Origin: Verpa conica
Lineage: Eukaryota > Ascomycota > Pezizomycetes > Pezizales > Morchellaceae
Assembly: GCA_033030425.1 (NCBI GenBank)
Contig: JAUFSD010000001.1
Span: 1-64,000, forward strand
DNA length: 64,000 nucleotides
Reading direction: 5' to 3'
Shown in pieces: positions 1-44,831 of the stretch. Position 1 is the stretch's first letter. Each line of letters starts with the position of its first letter. The notes under the pieces were generated by a model. The model was not told the origin of the DNA. It did no database searches and saw only the letters and a list, made by a program, of their open reading frames with translations. A program made the position numbers and the translations under genes.

Positions 1-149
1 CACGCGCGAACCACAAAAAACACGCGGGTCCACGGGGTAACGGGTGGTGCGGCGGGTTTTGGAGGTTTCTCGCCTAGAGGTTCACCCCCTGCGCTGGCCT
101 GCGCCAGAGAGGGGCAAGGTCCCAGCAAAGGTGCGCCGAGAAAAGGGAC

Positions 150-1110
150 CGAGTGACAGCCCGTGATGCAAGCGTGAGAAGTACCAAGACAGCCAGAGGA
201 GTCACTGGACACACAGAGTACTGTCAGGGGGCGAGCCCAGGGAAAAACACCCACACTCCAGTACTCACAAAAAGAAATCGAGAAGAAAACCGAGTGATAT
301 CTCATGACTCGTGCCAAAGCCCCAAGAGACAAAAAGCAAGCGGCGCCACAGCAAGCCTGACAAGCAAGCAGGCAGGTAGGGGGTGCTAGGGCAGACGTGG
401 GGTCTCTGGCGCAGGGGGGGGTGGGGGTGGGGCGCAGGCGCAGGTTGCTGGCAGTCAGCGAACGCCTGGGCGAGAACCGTACCGTGGCAAGGGCCGAGGT
501 CCAGGTGCCGAGAGAGAAGTACCTGGACTTGCAAGGGTGAAGAAGAGAAGTCACAGGACATCAACTCCACTGTCAGTCAGGCCCCACAAAGAAAAAAGAC
601 TGCACTCCCCTACTCAAAAAAAGAAACCGCGACGGAAATCGAGTGATTTCTCATGATTCGCGCAGTCGCCCCCCCCACCAAGCGCAGCAAGCAAGCAAGC
701 CTAGGAGCAGCGCCACAGCGACTGCAGGCAGGCATGCGGTGCTAGGGCAGACGTGGGGTGCCTGAAGTAGGGGGGTAGGGGTAGGGCGCAGGTTGTCAGC
801 AGTCAGCGAAATCACGAGTCGCGGCCGCAAAGTGGCAGCGGTCGAGGTCCAGGTGCCGAGAGAGAAGTACCTGGACAAGGGGAGGTGCATACAAAGGATC
901 TCAGGACATCTAGACTACTATCAGCCAGGCCCTACTGTGAAAAAGGATTACACCTCCCCACTCAATAGTGGAAATCGTGACATATGTCGAGTGATATCTC
1001 GTGACTCGTGCGACTGCGCAAGCAAGCAGGCAATAGGCAGGCAATAGGCAAGCAAGCAGGCAAGCAGGCGACGCCACAGAGACGTCAGAGAGAGACCCCA
1101 GGCAGCTAGG
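150..1110. repeat. Degenerate tandem repeat, unit about 348-356 bp
   Basis: Shared blocks recur at a constant offset. The motif CGAGTGATATCTCATGACTC or a close variant starts near 291, 640 and 988. The block CCAGGTGCCGAGAGAGAAGT starts at 501 and 849. The block GCTAGGGCAGACGTGGGGT starts at 385 and 741. This gives at least three diverged head-to-tail units, rich in CAAG/GCAG simple sequence. No coding function is seen; the short ORFs here do not resemble proteins. A related single motif occurs near 15225-15250. Confidence 0.75.
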
Positions 1111-1449
1111 CAAGCTGCAAGGTGTCGCGCAGGTCAATATGCAACTCTGCACTGCGTGCCATGGTCCAGAGCTCACGGTGTTCGGGCAACCTGCAGCAGC
1201 GCGCAGCCGAGAGGCAAGCGAGGAAGTACCCGACCATGTCCAGGTACATGAAGAGAGAGCTTATGACCGCCAAGACCTTGTCTGATTGTCCCTCTCTAGA
1301 AATAAAGATACACAGGGGGCTACAAAAGTCGCCAAAACCTCGCTACCAGCCGAAAACCGCCATAGATCGGGCAGGTCCCACGGCTGCGCAGAAGCAACGC
1401 CACAGCGACGTCTGCAGCAGGCGCCTAGGCAGGTGGGGGTAGGGCTGAA

Positions 1450-1525
1450 GCGCAGGGGGGTCTATATGGGGGGGTCTATGGGGGGGTCGATATGGGGGGT
1501 CTATAGGGTTGATATCAGGGTCTAT
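1450..1525. repeat. G-rich GGGTCTAT-type short tandem repeat
   Basis: Runs of five to seven G followed by TCTAT or TCGATAT are repeated about four to five times. The strand asymmetry (G-rich on the plus strand) could favour G-quadruplex structure. That is inference from composition only. Confidence 0.6.
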
Positions 1526-1559
1526 TGATTGAGTAAATCGCACAATGGGAAATGATTGA

Positions 1560-1810
1560 AACTACATGAAACGCGGTAAAGAACGCGATCTGAATCGCGG
1601 AAATCGCGGGAAATGATCTGAATTGCAGGAAACGCGGTAAAAAAACGCGATCGATCGGAATCGCAGGAATCGTGGGAAATGATCAGGATTGCAGGAAACG
1701 CGGTAAAAAACGCGGGAAATGATCGAGATTGCAGGAAACGCGGTCAAAACGCGATCGAACGGAATCGCAGGAAATGATCACAATCGCAGGTTTTAGGTAA
1801 AAAAAAATCT
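1560..1810. repeat. Cluster of short GATC/CGCG repeats
   Basis: Degenerate repeats of the words AAACGCGGTAAA, AACGCGATCG and GGAAATGATC recur about every 40-65 bp (AAACGCGGT near 1569, 1630, 1695 and 1736). The cluster ends where the LINE fragment begins. No gene is seen in it. Confidence 0.6.
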
Positions 1811-1852
1811 TGCGATCGATCGGTAATACGCTGCGTATTACCATGAAGCGTA

Positions 1853-3358
1853 GTGACAGACAAAGCCGACCTCCTCTATTTGCTACCCACCACCAGCAAT
1901 AGTAACCCACCCACCGTGACAGTCCCACTATATCAGAAACCCATAGCCCCGAAGGAGGTAATTAAAACCCTGGGGGTACACATAGATCAGAAGTGTACCT
2001 TCAGGGAACAAACCAGCAAAGCAGCCTCTAGAGCCACCACCATCACGGCCATGATTCGAAATTTTTCCAAGAATCAAAACATCACTCCCTTAACGGTGCA
2101 TAAGCTAGTTCAATCCCTTCTGATCCCAGCGATATTGTGGGGTTCGGAATTGTGGTGGACAGAAGCGGGTCACATCATTAGAAGGATAAGGCCAGCCTAC
2201 TTCAGAGCAGCCCGCCTCATTACCAGCCTCCCGGTCCGCACAAGCACTAAGGCAGTGCTAAGCAAAGCAGGACTCCCCACACTGGAAAATTTACTGGATT
2301 CCAAGACGGTCAGCTACAGGGTCAGAACACTCCTTAGCCCCGACTCCAACAGCATTAAACAAGACCTAATCCAACTTCTCAAGAAACCCACAAAACGCAT
2401 AGAATTCGGCCTGGAAAGAGTAGCATATCTCCTCCAAACAGCGACCCACCAACTCACAATTGAAGATCCCAGGGATGTATCCGCCCCCTGGCTCCCCCAA
2501 AGTCACATACACATAGCAACAACGGACAAAGAAGCGGAAAGCCTACAACACCAGGAGTGGGTAACCAGTCACCCAGAAATTTACAGAATTTACACCGACG
2601 GATCAAAAGAAAGCTCGGTCAGCTCGGCCTGGGTTTCCATTGTAAACAACACCATACAAGACAAAGGCAGCCTCAACTTAGGACGCTTCGCAGACATACT
2701 GGACGGGGAGCTGAAAGCAATAGCCCTAGCGCTTCACCATCTCCTGAACATCAATATTGTTAACACACCTATCTGGCTCTGCGTAGATAATCAACTCGCC
2801 ATCAGACGTCTCGGAGGAGCCCCGGCCCCAGCAGTGGAGGCGGTCCAGAGGTCCCTAACACTAATTCAAAAACTGGAACACAAAGGGTGCTCAGTAAACG
2901 TGAGATGGACTCCCTCTCACGTAGGCATCAAAGGCAACGACCTAGCGGACAAGCTCGCCCGAGACGGCCTGCAACTCCTTTGTACGAAACCCATGGCTTC
3001 CCTCACTTGGGTGAAAGGCCTATCCCATCAAATCAGACACGCGGGTCTCCCACATCACACACCTACCCCACATCTGGCAACAGTTAACAGACGAACGGCG
3101 GGAATAATGTGGAGAGTCAGAAATTCAGTCACCCATCTAGATCCCTCCCATTACAACCCATCCCCAAAATGCGAATGCGGCGACAAGTTATCAAGCAAAC
3201 ACATACTGCTCGACTGCCCCCGTTATCACCAACAGAGGAAATCCATGATCGATGAACACTACCCCACACACTCATGGGATCAGCTAATTAGCGATAGCAA
3301 CTGCTATCCCCTTATTCGGTTTATGCTCGGAACGGAGCTTAATGCTAGGAGGAAATAG
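1853..3358 (+). pseudogene. LINE ORF2 3' fragment: RT thumb plus RNase H
   Basis: This open frame of about 500 codons has no real start: a stop lies just upstream and the frame opens where truncation occurred. The first ~200 residues resemble the post-palm region of LINE reverse transcriptases (KTLGVHID, PAILWGSELWW). An RNase H domain follows with the expected acidic residues: YTDGS (Asp about residue 249), DGEL (Glu about 286), VDNQ (Asp about 312) and GNDLADKLA (Asp about 363-366), and HVGIKGND holds the conserved His. Near the end a CxC...H...C pattern (CECG...HILLDC) matches the terminal zinc-knuckle-like motif of these elements. The frame is intact over its whole length, which suggests fairly recent insertion. 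It is non-functional on its own because the polymerase active site is absent. Confidence 0.85.
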
Positions 3359-3540
3359 GAAAAACGGTGACCTGCGCGGAGGAAGCTTTTCTTTTGTATG
3401 CAGGCGGGAGAGAATGCGCTTGGGATTTTCTTTCTTTACTTTCTTTTCCTTTGTTCTATATATTTTGTTAGGGGACGCTTTAGTGTAGACGGTCGCTTAG
3501 CGACTTACTTAGTGGGCCACGGGCCTAGATAGGAAATAAA

Positions 3541-3564
3541 TACTACTACTACTACTACTACTAC
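3541..3564 (+). repeat. (TAC)8 microsatellite, LINE 3' tail
   Basis: Eight perfect TAC units directly follow an AATAAA-containing stretch. Position and orientation fit a LINE that ends in a simple repeat instead of poly(A). Confidence 0.8.
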
Positions 3565-3685
3565 TTATATTGTTACCATACCTACCTTGTCTCTGAGTTC
3601 CTAGTCTCTCGATACTAGCCTTGCCTTGTGATTATCGCCTGCTGTTCCCCAATAGGTGATCGGTTTTTACACAATGCCACAAAAA

Positions 3686-4040
3686 GCTGTCGCCCGACAA
3701 GAAGCAAGCGCCAGAGATGTACCCATATATTGTCACTTGACAGTAACCTGCAGCCCCCCAGAGACATAGAAGCTGTCGTGCAACAACCAAGTACAGGCAG
3801 CAAAGTCTCCAGTTGCTGTCGAGCGACAATTACCCGTACCCAGCAAAGGCCCAGATAGCTGTCGGGCGACAATATCTGACATCTCGAGGAGGAGGATGTT
3901 TCTGTCGGGCAACAGACAGCAGCAGCCCGGCACAGGTCCAGTATGGTCGAGCGACAGAAAGCTGCAGGCATATAGAGACAAAAGCTGTCGTCCGACAGCT
4001 ATTATTGACAGCAACTCTTGTCTTTTTGTCGAGCGACAGT
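3686..4040. repeat. Array of nine regularly spaced 12-bp palindromes (43-bp period)
   Basis: Nine copies of the inverted repeat TGTCG-NN-CGACA start at 3688, 3731, 3774, 3817, 3860, 3903, 3945, 3986 and 4027. The first six are exactly 43 bp apart; later steps are 42, 41 and 41 bp. The spacers (31 nt, then 30 and 29 nt) are not obvious copies of each other; only faint purine-rich words such as CAGCAAAG are shared. Several copies extend to GCTGTCGNNCGACAA. The two central bases vary (CC, CT, TG, AG, GG, TC), while deviations in the arms are mostly CG to CA or TG. The layout looks like a CRISPR array in form, but this is eukaryotic DNA with no cas-like gene, so CRISPR identity is not claimed. 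Phased binding sites for a dimeric protein, or a decayed minisatellite in which only the palindrome is conserved, are alternatives. Confidence 0.85.
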
Positions 4041-4707
4041 TGACCCTAACCCAGGTCACATACCAGGAAAAAACCGTATAATTAGCCCGGACCAAATCCT
4101 TATTTGGCCTCACCTTAAAAATTATTAGAAGAGCCTTGTTTCAAAGATAGGACGGTTTTTAAGGGATCTCTGGGGCTGTAGGGTAAAAAAAGGAGTATTG
4201 GTTTTCACTTGAGCTTCTTGGGCTTGCCTGGGGTCCCATCAAATAAGTTGGGCTGAGCTGGGCCCATGATGAGGTGGGTCAGGTCGGGCGGTGCCAGTGC
4301 CTTTTTTTGGCCGGGGTTGCCTACTGGAAGGCCTGGTCGCCTCTGTGGTTCTCTGTTCTACGGGAATCTTTTATTCTTCTATTTCTTTTATTTCTTTATT
4401 TAATTTAGTCTTAGTGGTGCTGTGCCGCAGCAAAAGTCTCATACTCAGACCGGGTCCCATAAAGCTAATATCGACAAGCGGAGAGGTAATACCCTAGCAA
4501 AGATTCATTTATCTAACTCACTACCCCTGGTACCTATATATAAACGTAAAATGAGACCCTATGTAGGTCCTACAAGTGAAATTACTAGGGGTTCGTATCC
4601 TCGTATTTCGGTAGTGACTATGGACATGAGCATTCTGTTAATGGTCACATGACTTGGAAAGTGCTCACCTCATCGCCTATATGGAGAGACGGGGGTCTAT
4701 TTCTCAG
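4041..4707. other. Intergenic, no gene seen
   Basis: The stretch is AT-rich with scattered stops in all frames. The small open frames at 4291-4652 lack recognisable features. Confidence 0.5.
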
Positions 4708-5847
4708 TCAGTACAAGTAAATATATATGTTAAGTGGTCTAGTGTAGAAATACTTAAGGATCCAGCTTTGACTTCCCCCCGTGTGAACGAATCTCTTGTT
4801 ACAACAATCTAGAGCTACCCCACTATTGAAAGGGGTTTTTGTGGATTGTAGTAGACAGCCGGACTTGCGGTTGATAATCTTCCAGTTACATGATGCATCC
4901 AATTCCAGCTTCCACTTGAGACCTTCATCCTGCTCTTTAGCATTTTCTAGTTTTATATTTCCAAAACGATGATTTAGGTGGGCTCTTGTGCGCCGGTTGA
5001 CAATATACCATGAGTTGATTTCGTCAGCGGTCGAGGGCTCAAAGCATTTCGAGTGAGCTAAGGTCCACTGGAATTCCCACCCCTCTAGGTGTTGGGATTC
5101 TTTTTGGGAGGTCGGAGGTGGGAGTAATATAGGTGAGTTATACACATAATTCTGCCTCAGTAAATCTCCGGTCCCAACATTTTGAATGTGGAGCCACCCA
5201 GATGGAAAAGCTACGACCGGGATCAAAAGATCCCAGTAGTGTTCATGCCGGCCGGGAGCAAACTGTTTGCCAGTAACTCTCGCACCAGGTGGGGGGTTGT
5301 CACCAACTGTATCAACTACTTTATCGTTGAAAAAGTTGACAATATTATAGCAAACCTCGCTAAGAAACGCATTTAGTATAAATTTTGAATGGAACGCCAA
5401 ATTGTAACCTACCCCTGCCAACCTTCAATTACTTTCTTCAGCCTCCACCGCTGCCATGGACGTCCGTGGTGAACCCAGGTACACACATTCTCTATTTTCC
5501 GCGCCCTTTCCTTAGCATCCCATAGATAAACATTGAGTAGAGCTGCCTTCCGTACCATCACCTGGATTCATGTCTAGTGATCTACCACTTGCGGGATTAG
5601 TTATAGAATATACCAAACCTTCCTCGGGCTTGGAATCTTCACTGCCATAGTCGGCCAGTGGTTCAATCCACCAGATTTGTTGATCTTTTAAATTGTTTTC
5701 ATCTTGCTTGGACGCTAATACATGAGAACCATCCCTATTGGCATCAGCATGCTCCATGTGTAGGACGGTGGATGTTTTTCGGTTGCGGATGACATATGCG
5801 CCCGCAGAGAGTGTGCCTGTGAGTTCCGAAGATGGTTCCTGCGCCAT
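4708..5847 (-). CDS. Ricin-B-type beta-trefoil lectin-like protein
   Basis: Two exons fit: 5847-5556 and 5414-4708, joined in phase 1 (donor GTACGG, acceptor GGCAG), giving about 332 aa. The protein shows repeated beta-trefoil signatures: YVIRNRKTSTVLHM near residue 17, SITNPASGRSLDMNPGDG near 80-97, NIVNFFNDKVVDTVGDNPP after the splice, and WYIVNRRTRAHLNHR and WKIINRKSGCLLQS towards the end. These match the (I/V)xNxxSgxxLDv pattern of ricin-B/RICIN folds, which bind sugars. No signal peptide is visible, so a cytoplasmic lectin is likely, as with many fungal defence lectins. The usual QxW motifs are weak (HEHYW, WKLEL), so carbohydrate binding is unproven. The gene lies tail-away from the jacalin-like gene 1.6 kb to the right. 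Confidence 0.7.
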
Positions 5848-43700: not shown

Positions 43701-44831
43701 AGAGATGCGAATAGTCGGAGTTATGCCAATGCCCTAGAGGATGGTGACACCCAGATAGATGGGTATATTGTCTGTTTGTCCCTCGGGCTCGTTGATATAT
43801 TTCAAAGGTTTCGCCAAGTAGATATCTCAATCCTTGACTCGCAAAAGTATAAAACAGCGCTGCATCATGCTGCCTACGGCGGCTTTATATCTTGCATTCA
43901 GGGGCTTTTGAATTCTGGATTCAGCGCAAACACTGAGGACGAGAAGGGAGTACGGCCATTGTATTATGCCTGCGAAAAGGATCACCATATGGCCGTAAGA
44001 TTGTTATTAGAGAAAGGTGCCGAAGTCAATGCTCAGGGTGGAGGTTACGGAAACGCCTTGCAAGCAGCAGCCTACAACGGCCACGAAACAGTCGTACAGA
44101 TCCTCTTGGATAAAGGTGCCGAAGTCAATGCTCAGGGTGGATATTACGGAAACGCCTTGCAAGCAGCAGCCTGCTGGGGCTACGAAACGGTGGTACAGAT
44201 CCTCTTAGATAAAGGTGCCGAAGTCAATGCTCAGGGTGGAGAGTACGGAAACGCCTTGCAAGCAGCAGCCTGCCGCGGCCACGAAAAGATAGTACAGATC
44301 CTCTTGAATAAAGGTGCCGAAGTCAATGCTCAGGGTGGAGAGTACGGAACCGCCTTGCAAGCAGCAGCCTACCGCGGTCATAAAACGATAGTACAGATCC
44401 TCTTGGATAAAGGTGCCGAAGTCAATGCTCAGGGTGGAGAGTACGGAAACGCCTTGCAAGCAGCAGCCTACTGCGGTCATAAAACAACAGTACAGATCCT
44501 CTTGGATAAAGGTGCTGAAGTCAATGCTCAGGGTGGAGAGTACGGAAATGCCTTGCAAGCAGCAGCCTGCCGCGGCCACGAAAAGATAGTACAGATCCTC
44601 TTGAATAAAGGTGCCGAAGTCAATGCTCAGGGTGGATATTACGGAAACGCCTTGCAAGCAGCAGCCTGCTGGGGCTACGAAACGGTGGTACAGATCCTCT
44701 TAGATAAAGGTGCCGAAGTCAATGCTCAGGGTGGAGAGTACGGAAACGCCTTGCAAGCAGCAACCGTCCAACATCACAAAAAGATAGTACAGATCCTCTT
44801 GGATAAAGGTGCCAAATATGAAATCGAGTAA
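40787..44831 (+). CDS. NACHT-ankyrin NLR-like STAND protein
   Basis: Ten exons join in frame: 40787-40935, 40990-41085, 41145-41451, 41523-41645, 41707-41791, 41845-42018, 42075-42248, 42305-42329, 42380-42961 and 43016-44831 (1,176 aa). The Pro-rich start contains twin motifs (PNPTLQSALA, PNPAFQSALA). A helical N-terminal domain of the kind found in fungal NLRs follows. The P-loop GSPGVGKSVLA (about 367-377) is split over two introns, one side being a 25-nt exon. Walker B is FIIIDALDE (about 467-475). After the NACHT and winged-helix-like part (LALMWVLYAGRPLRLGELAQA) come ankyrin repeats from about residue 850. The last eight are almost identical 33-mers of the type LLDKGAEVNAQGG-YGNALQ. Such proteins are signal-transducing receptors tied to heterokaryon incompatibility and non-self recognition. 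Here all landmark residues are intact. Confidence 0.9.
44016..44807 (+). repeat. Eight 99-bp ankyrin-coding repeats, nearly identical
   Basis: Units start with GGTGCCGAAGTCAATGCTCA at 44016, 44115, 44214, 44313, 44412, 44511, 44610 and 44709; a ninth start at 44808 is cut by the stop. Units differ mainly in two places: the codon after CAGGGTGGA (Gly, Tyr or Glu) and a cluster of six codons after GCAGCAGCC (for example TyrAsnGlyHisGluThr or CysArgGlyHisGluLys). By these variable positions unit 6 equals unit 3 and unit 7 equals unit 2. Confidence 0.9.

What the first reader, a model, noticed from the sequence alone, without database searches (positions are those of the whole stretch)
3686..4040. 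Regularly spaced palindrome array with unrelated spacers in a fungal genome
Nine copies of TGTCG-NN-CGACA sit at a fixed pitch (43, 43, 43, 43, 43, 42, 41, 41 bp), with spacers of 31 to 29 nt that do not look like copies of one another. A tandem minisatellite should keep similarity across the whole unit. Here only the palindrome and its spacing are kept, which suggests selection for phased symmetric sites. About four helical turns separate sites, so they face the same side of DNA. Possibilities are an array of operators for a dimeric DNA-binding protein, a structural or replication element, a transposon internal region, or an array that acquires foreign spacers. I know of no described fungal element of this form.
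Basis: seen in the sequence. Interest (0 to 1): 0.85.

Follow-up and report, generated by a model that had tools for sequence, protein, structure and literature searches.

The report
Telomere-linked element with phased palindromes
The evenly spaced palindromes are the inner end of a repeated piece of DNA found near chromosome tips in a cup-fungus-like genome, and both the palindrome and its spacing look preserved by selection while the DNA in between drifts.

Summary
The array is real (9 sites, pitch 43-41 bp), but its spacers are not unrelated. The same spacers recur in the same order in arrays at other contig ends and again within arrays: a diverged ~43-bp repeat. The array's inner end matches 22 places, all within 39 kb of contig ends, 19 pointing the same way. 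It is the inner module of a telomere-linked element: a fixed end (TATAAT| in 17 of 20 copies) facing the centromere with unrelated sequence beyond, a variably cut end facing the telomere, no target duplication seen. Sister modules and a telomere-specific LINE share the polarity. A second, single-copy array keeps 40 palindromes at 40-43 bp, and in its right half spacers are about as different as shuffles. Best reading: phased sites for a dimeric DNA-binding protein (core TCG-NN-CGA), carried by a HeT-A/MoTeR-like telomere element family. The protein and the array's role are unknown. New variant of a known kind.

The parts
1..567 (+). Constant telomere-side start of the element (CACGCGCGAACCACAAAAAACACGCGGG...) and adjoining repeat region; the contig begins exactly here
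   Evidence: Same start follows telomere repeats at C3:289 and C19:196; 7 pattern hits (<=3 mismatches), 7 of 7 near contig ends and pointing inward
568..1463 (+). Body repeat R1, rich in A and G on this strand; no coding domain recognised in pieces tested from other copies
   Evidence: 84% identity to L020:182-1050; copies in many fetched contig ends; Pfam on three ORFs of other copies, no hit; skews
1454..1508 (+). GGGGGGTCTAT-type minisatellite that links R1 to the inner modules
   Evidence: TRF; similar linker before modules a, b, c and d in other copies
1519..1859 (+). Module b (CGCGGTAAA..CGCG repeats; CGGTAATACG palindrome), ending ...TAGTGACAG|; start approximate
   Evidence: Four copies with different sequence after the end
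1860..3565 (+). 5'-truncated LINE with RNase H and a (TAC)n tail, directly abutting the end of module b
   Evidence: RNase H, E 2.5e-7; (TAC)n at 3541-3565; junction
3640..4082 (+). Module c, cut on its telomere side: the palindrome array of the finding plus its constant end; clear homology from about 3669
3688..4038 (+). Nine phased TGTCG-NN-CGACA sites (starts 3688, 3731, 3774, 3817, 3860, 3903, 3945, 3986, 4027)
4039..4082 (+). Constant inner terminus GTTGACCCTAACCCAGGTCACATACCAGGAAAAAACCGTATAAT|, centromere side
   Evidence: 20 copies aligned at the end motif, no two with the same junction
4083..4140 (.). Flank after the element, not shared at the junction with the other copies

Best explanation
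SHOWN: the array is module c, the centromere-facing end of a multi-copy, telomere-linked element family. The family has a fixed inner end (mostly ...TATAAT), a variably cut outer end and a body whose constant start abuts telomere repeats; elements are chained head to tail at chromosome ends, next to a telomere-specific LINE. SHOWN: palindrome and pitch are conserved well beyond the spacers. INFERRED (about 0.6): each TGTCG-NN-CGACA (core TCG-NN-CGA) is a site for a dimeric DNA-binding protein. Repeats about four helical turns apart let many dimers bind on one face, and whole-unit gain and loss changes the number of sites (15-31 in the eight complete arrays). INFERRED (about 0.5): copies arise by addition of an element's fixed inner end to a broken or eroded chromosome end, in the way HeT-A, MoTeRs and FoTeRs extend ends, probably by reverse transcription of an RNA that starts at the telomere. 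INFERRED (about 0.25): the bound array acts as a regulatory or chromatin platform (promoter/enhancer or end-protecting heterochromatin) for the element and the new end.
For: Location and polarity: 22 matches of the inner end, all within 39 kb of contig ends, 19 with the constant end inward (the tool calls such counts lower bounds); module a 34 matches, 33 checked and polar, one (C24:1269814) on a contig of unknown length; start motif 7 of 7; of seven RT matches within 15 kb of contig ends six belong to one LINE, 6 of 6 polar. Fixed end with unrelated flanks: 20 c, 12 a, 9 d, 4 e and 4 b junctions. The other side is capped by telomere repeats in L027 and by the end of module a in L019, L021, L025. 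Nested-insertion test: 24 of 49 junctions testable, 1 candidate, which looks like the intact start of the upstream element. One sequence is cut at four successive points, each joined to another element copy (L005 and L013 by a, L008 and L032 by c). Palindrome divergence 0.05-0.12 at spacer divergence from 0 to 0.8, 132 units. Second array f: 40 sites, mean 1.275 mismatches against 5.68 +/- 0.16 in 300 shuffles; right-half spacers 0.686 against 0.689 +/- 0.006 shuffled. No compensation between outer arm positions in f.
Against: No binding protein is identified and no binding or RNA data exist. Module-c sites decay at CpG (93 of 172 changes over 254 sites, 121 sites exact), so many copies may be dead. 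My walk along the arrays accepted sites with up to 4 of 10 mismatches and preferred the expected pitch, which favours conserved sites; the unit pairs are not independent; palindrome divergence does rise a little (about 0.09 to 0.11-0.12) with spacer divergence. Pitch has exceptions: a 30-bp step in L025 and interrupted stretches in L006 and L033. Neighbouring spacers in the right half of f differ slightly less (0.63) than shuffles, and f is one locus. Conserved ends also fit a DNA process. Three of 22 copies are reversed. No complete start-to-module-c element was found; the ones that begin at the start motif lead to modules a or b.
Confidence: 0.6

Rival explanations
1. Ordinary diverged subtelomeric minisatellite: unequal exchange keeps the unit length, and the palindrome persists only because exchange happens there or by chance; no protein reads it.
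For: Spacers are homologous and complete arrays differ in whole-unit steps; VNTRs are common in telomeric elements (PMC12857005 section 17).
Against: Palindrome divergence hardly grows as spacers saturate; in the right half of array f palindrome and pitch persist where spacers show almost no similarity, so recent copying does not explain it.
Confidence: 0.2
2. The palindromes act as RNA hairpins in the inner (3') part of a retroelement transcript, as recognition signals for a reverse transcriptase.
For: The array lies in the inner, presumably 3', module, and other modules are also rich in palindromes.
Against: A two-base centre is too small for an RNA loop at full stem length (general knowledge). 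Outer arm positions in f do not compensate (A2/T11 3, A2/C11 10, G2/T11 16, G2/C11 10, C2/C11 1 of 40). In module c, changes that make a wobble pair on the + strand number 51 against 84 on the - strand, which does not favour a + strand hairpin but would be compatible with one on the other strand. Copies with only one or two sites still have the fixed end.
Confidence: 0.1
3. Elements spread as DNA: a chromosome-end fragment cut at TATAAT, or an ALT-like or break-induced copy, is captured by broken ends.
For: Polarity and truncation also fit end repair; subtelomeric sequence is copied to deprotected ends in Pyricularia (PMC8381367, passages) and TelKO elements spread in Naumovozyma ALT cells (PMC12408736, passages).
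Against: Such copying should join at homology or at telomere repeats (general knowledge), whereas here 20 c and 12 a copies stop at corresponding bases with different neighbours, and no two listed copies of one module share the same junction.
Confidence: 0.25
4. An array that acquires foreign spacers, CRISPR-like.
Against: Same spacers in the same order at several chromosome ends, related to one another.
Confidence: 0.01

Closest known systems
MoTeR / FoTeR telomeric LINEs of Pyricularia (Magnaporthe) and Fusarium (PMC12857005: abstract, sections 17 and 19 read; PMC7367193 and PMC8381367: passages)
   Same: Insert at chromosome ends, truncated relics, variable tandem repeats in the element. 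The LINE here has a FoTeR-like junction: element end followed by a short telomere tract.
   Different: The array element has no recognised coding domain in the pieces tested, its inner end is not followed by a telomere tract, and its repeats are phased palindromes. 'palindrom' occurs 0 times in the main text of PMC7367193 and of PMC8381367. A shorter MoTeR2 exists (named); that it lacks a reverse transcriptase is recalled.
HeT-A / TART / TAHRE telomere arrays of Drosophila (PMC5537684 passages)
   Same: Head-to-tail chains with one polarity, 3' end to the centromere, long 3' regions that carry promoters.
   Different: This fungus has telomere repeats and a telomerase RNA-binding domain match; the element's inner end has no poly(A); no coding domain found in the pieces tested.
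Yeast subtelomeric X/Y' (start of abstract of PMC11042809 in a listing) and N. castellii TelKO elements (PMC12408736 passages)
   Same: Multi-copy subtelomeric elements with truncated variants; TelKO can bind the telomere protein Rap1 in vitro.
   Different: Here a fixed inner end with unrelated neighbours, several interchangeable inner modules, phased palindromes.
Iteron-, FR- or operator-type arrays of dimer sites (recalled, no call)
   Same: Tandem symmetric sites at near-integral helical pitch.
   Different: Here no protein is known and the array is part of a repeated subtelomeric element.

Membership tests
Telomere-targeted non-LTR retrotransposon (MoTeR/FoTeR type), asked of the array element | Encodes a reverse transcriptase | tested here: not met
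   No Pfam hit in three ORFs from body copies (L006:329-967, L020:101-622, L013:1903-2445); other frames not searched one by one. The separate LINE (L011:4372-7338) has RVT_1.
Telomere-targeted non-LTR retrotransposon (MoTeR/FoTeR type), asked of the array element | 3' end followed by telomere repeats | tested here: not met
   0 of 20 module-c ends is directly followed by telomere repeats; in L020 the neighbour is a remnant of a LINE end. For the LINE itself: 7 ends and the L020 remnant, all followed by a tract; the search motif included part of the tract, but a looser search (up to 13 of 33 mismatches) showed no LINE end without one.
HeT-A-like head-to-tail telomeric chain (works like) | Single polarity, fixed 3' end inward, truncated 5' end outward | tested here: met
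   19 of 22; 7 of 7; 33 of 34, one unchecked
HeT-A-like head-to-tail telomeric chain (works like) | End addition rather than internal insertion | tested here: inconclusive
   24 of 49 junctions testable, 1 nested candidate; no target duplication noticed by eye in the 13 cut copies printed
HeT-A-like head-to-tail telomeric chain (works like) | RNA intermediate | not testable with these tools
   No transcript data held
Simple minisatellite | Similarity over the whole unit | tested here: met
   For module c spacers are related. For the right half of array f: not met.
Simple minisatellite | No part of the unit more constrained than the rest | tested here: not met
   Palindrome against spacer divergence
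CRISPR-like spacer array | Spacers mutually unrelated and acquired from foreign DNA | tested here: not met
   Spacers related; foreign matches were not searched for

The most novel reading that the evidence does not exclude
A filamentous ascomycete that has telomerase also heals eroded chromosome ends with a zoo of non-coding, RNA-templated end elements (modules a-e, three of them with a TATAAT terminus). Their inner module c is a portable array of phased sites for a dimeric host protein that organises the new end; the same site code is used beside a host gene (array f).
Probability: 0.2. Interest if true: 0.85.

Novelty: new variant of a known kind. Interest (0 to 1): 0.6.

Why it matters
Telomeric retroelements in fungi are known mainly as coding LINEs. 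The element here has no recognised coding domain in the pieces tested, ends at one fixed point against arbitrary DNA, and carries a phased palindrome array. If the array binds a host protein, this gives a natural, countable series (1 to 31 sites) in which to test how site number and phasing set chromatin or transcription at a chromosome end, and a way to find an unknown subtelomeric DNA-binding protein. It also offers a clear test of whether non-coding elements can cap broken ends in an organism with telomerase.

Tried and rejected
Rejected: spacer acquisition. Known structured RNA: no Rfam match at gathering level in the 10 subtelomeric loci given, so no hammerhead of the Penelope type seen there. 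Array as part of the neighbouring LINE in the window: the LINE tail ends at 3565 and about 75-100 bp without clear homology separate it from the array. Array as transposase-bound end beside a transposase gene: the open frame next to array f looks by eye like a coiled-coil protein (no domain search made). Homology between array f and module c spacers: weak at best (first six f spacers 6.3 against 3.6 shuffled, next fourteen 4.8 against 3.0, rest 2.4 against 1.4). Species: no named close match; an acyl-CoA synthetase exon is 82% identical to Rhizina undulata and Tuber indicum and 89% to an unnamed protein, so a Pezizales-like fungus. A full list of the 162 exact palindromes was not obtained: one search listed the first 50 sites (46 in arrays or clusters near contig ends, 4 isolated and interior); its control pattern gave 31. 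A search with the f-type variant TCGAGCGATA (75 places, control 65) showed clustering only on C13. Literature: in six searches I saw no described fungal element with phased palindromes among the titles and abstract starts listed; listings were capped and the library lacks most subscription journals.

Full report
WHAT IS THERE. Nine sites close to TGTCG-NN-CGACA lie at 3688-4038 with pitch 43,43,43,43,43,42,41,41. Shuffled sequence never gave more than 4 such sites in 400 bp in 300 trials. The whole assembly (45.84 Mb, 25 contigs) holds 162 exact copies of the palindrome against 31 of a reversed control. Of the first 50 listed, four are isolated and interior (C2, two on C3, C4); the other 46 lie near contig ends.

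THE SPACERS ARE RELATED. BLAST of the window array against the contig starts I had fetched found it again in L006, L008, L009 (twice), L019, L020 and L021, in pieces of 75-92% identity. Printed unit by unit, the same spacer types recur in the same order in different arrays and again within arrays. Over 132 units of 43 bp the mean pairwise spacer difference is 0.54 against 0.735 when spacers are shuffled. So this is a diverged tandem repeat, and the 'unrelated spacers' of the finding come from seeing one cut copy.

PALINDROME AND PITCH ARE NEVERTHELESS SPECIAL. When unit pairs are binned by spacer difference, palindrome difference is 0.052 in the 21 pairs with near-identical spacers, 0.085-0.093 up to a spacer difference of 0.55, and 0.108-0.118 beyond that. 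Among pairs whose spacers differ by less than 8% the palindrome is even the faster-changing part. Over 254 sites 93 of 172 changes are CpG transitions. Yet these changes hardly accumulate with age, which is what purifying selection in the source copies would give. Two cautions: the pairs are not independent, so I give no p-value; and the walk that collected the sites accepted at most 4 mismatches of 10 and preferred the expected pitch, so badly decayed units are missing.

A SECOND ARRAY MAKES THE POINT MORE STRONGLY. On contig C13 (1509543-1511197) lies array f, with 40 sites at 40-43 bp; a search with most of its right half found no copy elsewhere. Mean mismatch is 1.275 of 10, against 5.68 +/- 0.16 for the same walk on 300 shuffles. 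In its right 20 units the spacers are no more alike than shuffles over all pairs (0.686 against 0.689 +/- 0.006; gapped score -3.84 against -4.21 +/- 0.32), with a slight residue between neighbours (0.63), while the core TCG-NN-CGA is 90-100% kept. Array f ends about 150 bp before the first ATG of a 413-codon open frame that looks like a coiled-coil protein. Changes at outer arm positions 2 and 11 avoid each other rather than compensate (Fisher p 0.04 on 39 units), which fits a dimer tolerating one weak half-site better than a base-paired hairpin, but the number is small.

THE ARRAY IS ONE MODULE OF A TELOMERE-LINKED ELEMENT. A search with the last 180 bp of the array gave 22 places, all within 39 kb of contig ends; four of them match 72-109 bp only. 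Nine at contig starts are on + and ten at contig ends on -; three at contig ends are reversed (C5:2032343, C20:1382634, C22:1344628) (lengths). At the inner end the copies stop at corresponding bases and continue into different sequence: of 20 copies, 17 end TATAAT, two TATAAA and one TATAAC, and no two share a junction. At the outer end they are cut at different points: eight complete arrays have 15-31 sites, the rest 1-11 by the walk, though L025 lists 20 with one 30-bp step. In L027 telomere repeats are joined directly to a cut array; in L019, L021 and L025 the neighbour is the end of module a. In front of the complete arrays that I could read lies the body repeat R1 and a GGGGGGTCTAT linker, in some of them cut short. 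The same body and linker also lead to other inner modules: a, with ACTCCCG-NN-CGGGAGT palindromes at irregular pitch, ending CCCTATAAT|; b, ending TAGTGAYAG|; and d, ending ATTATA|. A further family, e, ends GCATATAAT|. The body's constant start, CACGCGCGAACC, follows telomere repeats at C3:289 and C19:196 and is the first base of this window. Module a gave 34 places: 21 on + at contig starts (up to 70 kb in), 12 on - at contig ends, and C24:1269814 on -, whose contig length I did not get.

A TELOMERE-SPECIFIC LINE IS PRESENT. Of seven reverse-transcriptase matches within 15 kb of contig ends (which scored 150 of 186 candidates), six (C8, C9, C25 on +; C3, C4, C17 on -) belong to one LINE by their 3' ends, and all six point inward; the seventh, C6:60, is in an LTR-type fragment to my eye. 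The LINE end AAAATTCTTAATCACTAACCCTAA is followed by short telomere tracts and then by other, cut sequence in 7 places and in one remnant (L020). Pfam recognises only RVT_1 in its large frame. Its best named relative is a Morchella sextelata protein at 44% identity over 58%. Telomerase seems present: two adjacent matches to its RNA-binding domain lie on C11, one with stops nearby that may be an intron.

HOW IT PROBABLY WORKS. The chain of fixed inner ends landing on cut older sequence, the single polarity, and the failure to find the missing left halves (24 of 49 junctions could be tested; the one candidate, L022:2403, looks like the intact start of the upstream element) fit addition to eroded chromosome ends. 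One subtelomeric sequence is seen cut at four successive points, joined to a copy of module a (L005, L013) or c (L008, L032). Reverse transcription from a broken end is the simplest way to get a fixed inner end without a target duplication, by analogy with HeT-A and with MoTeR/FoTeR, but no RNA evidence exists here. The array's own job is inferred from its form: phased symmetric sites read by a dimeric protein. I think a regulatory or chromatin role at the new end most likely.

AGAINST MY READING. Three reversed copies; many decayed sites; irregular steps in L006, L025 and L033; no complete element running from the telomere-side start into module c; a DNA-based route cannot be excluded; wobble-type changes lean to the - strand (84 against 51), so a hairpin in an outward transcript is not excluded; the constraint argument rests on related units and on one independent array; no protein is known.

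COMPARISON. The LINE is MoTeR/FoTeR-like by position and junction (PMC12857005 abstract and sections 17 and 19 read; PMC7367193 and PMC8381367 passages). The array element fails two defining features of that family (reverse transcriptase; telomere tract at the 3' end), so I do not file it there. It behaves like a HeT-A chain (PMC5537684 passages). Subtelomeric TelKO elements (PMC12408736 passages) are the closest DNA-based analogue. Six searches showed no description of phased palindromes in such an element among the papers listed.

Noticed in passing
G000:C13:1509543-1511197 (L032 and L043): Second array: 40 palindromes at 40-43 bp, spacers without clear similarity in its right half, just upstream of a coiled-coil-like ORF; beside it a large inverted repeat (GTAGCTAACTGGCTAACTGTTGTCCGA arms) at about 1509469.
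   Followed up: partly
L011:2400-8205 and L026, L028, L039, L040, L041, L042: Telomere-specific LINE whose 3' end is followed by short telomere tracts; in L011 two copies are chained, the second 5'-truncated.
   Followed up: partly
L009:1-3030 (C6 start): Telomere repeats joined directly to a fragment of an LTR-type retrotransposon, as if a break had been healed there.
   Followed up: no
L005, L006, L009, L022 starts: Telomere repeat is an irregular mix of CCCTAACTAAA and CCCTAAACTAA rather than plain CCCTAA.
   Followed up: no
L007:1290-1674, L024, L018, L010: Module d carries GGCGCC/AAAGTCGCTTTTAATTAT tandem units and other palindromes before its ATTATA end.
   Followed up: no
L011:1-850, L008:2082-3000, L009:3033-3260: Long AATACAC-type simple repeat family at chromosome ends; in L009 and L011 it is followed further in by another TATAAT-ended module (e).
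   Followed up: no
L006:4347-6071: 575-codon open frame with an HNH endonuclease domain (HNH_2, E 2.6e-8) inside a subtelomere.
   Followed up: no
window 4711-5424 (-): Open frame with a ricin-type lectin domain match (E 5e-6) just inside the array.
   Followed up: no
window 44013-44813: Eight 99-bp tandem repeats, 88% alike, that look by eye like coding ankyrin repeats.
   Followed up: no
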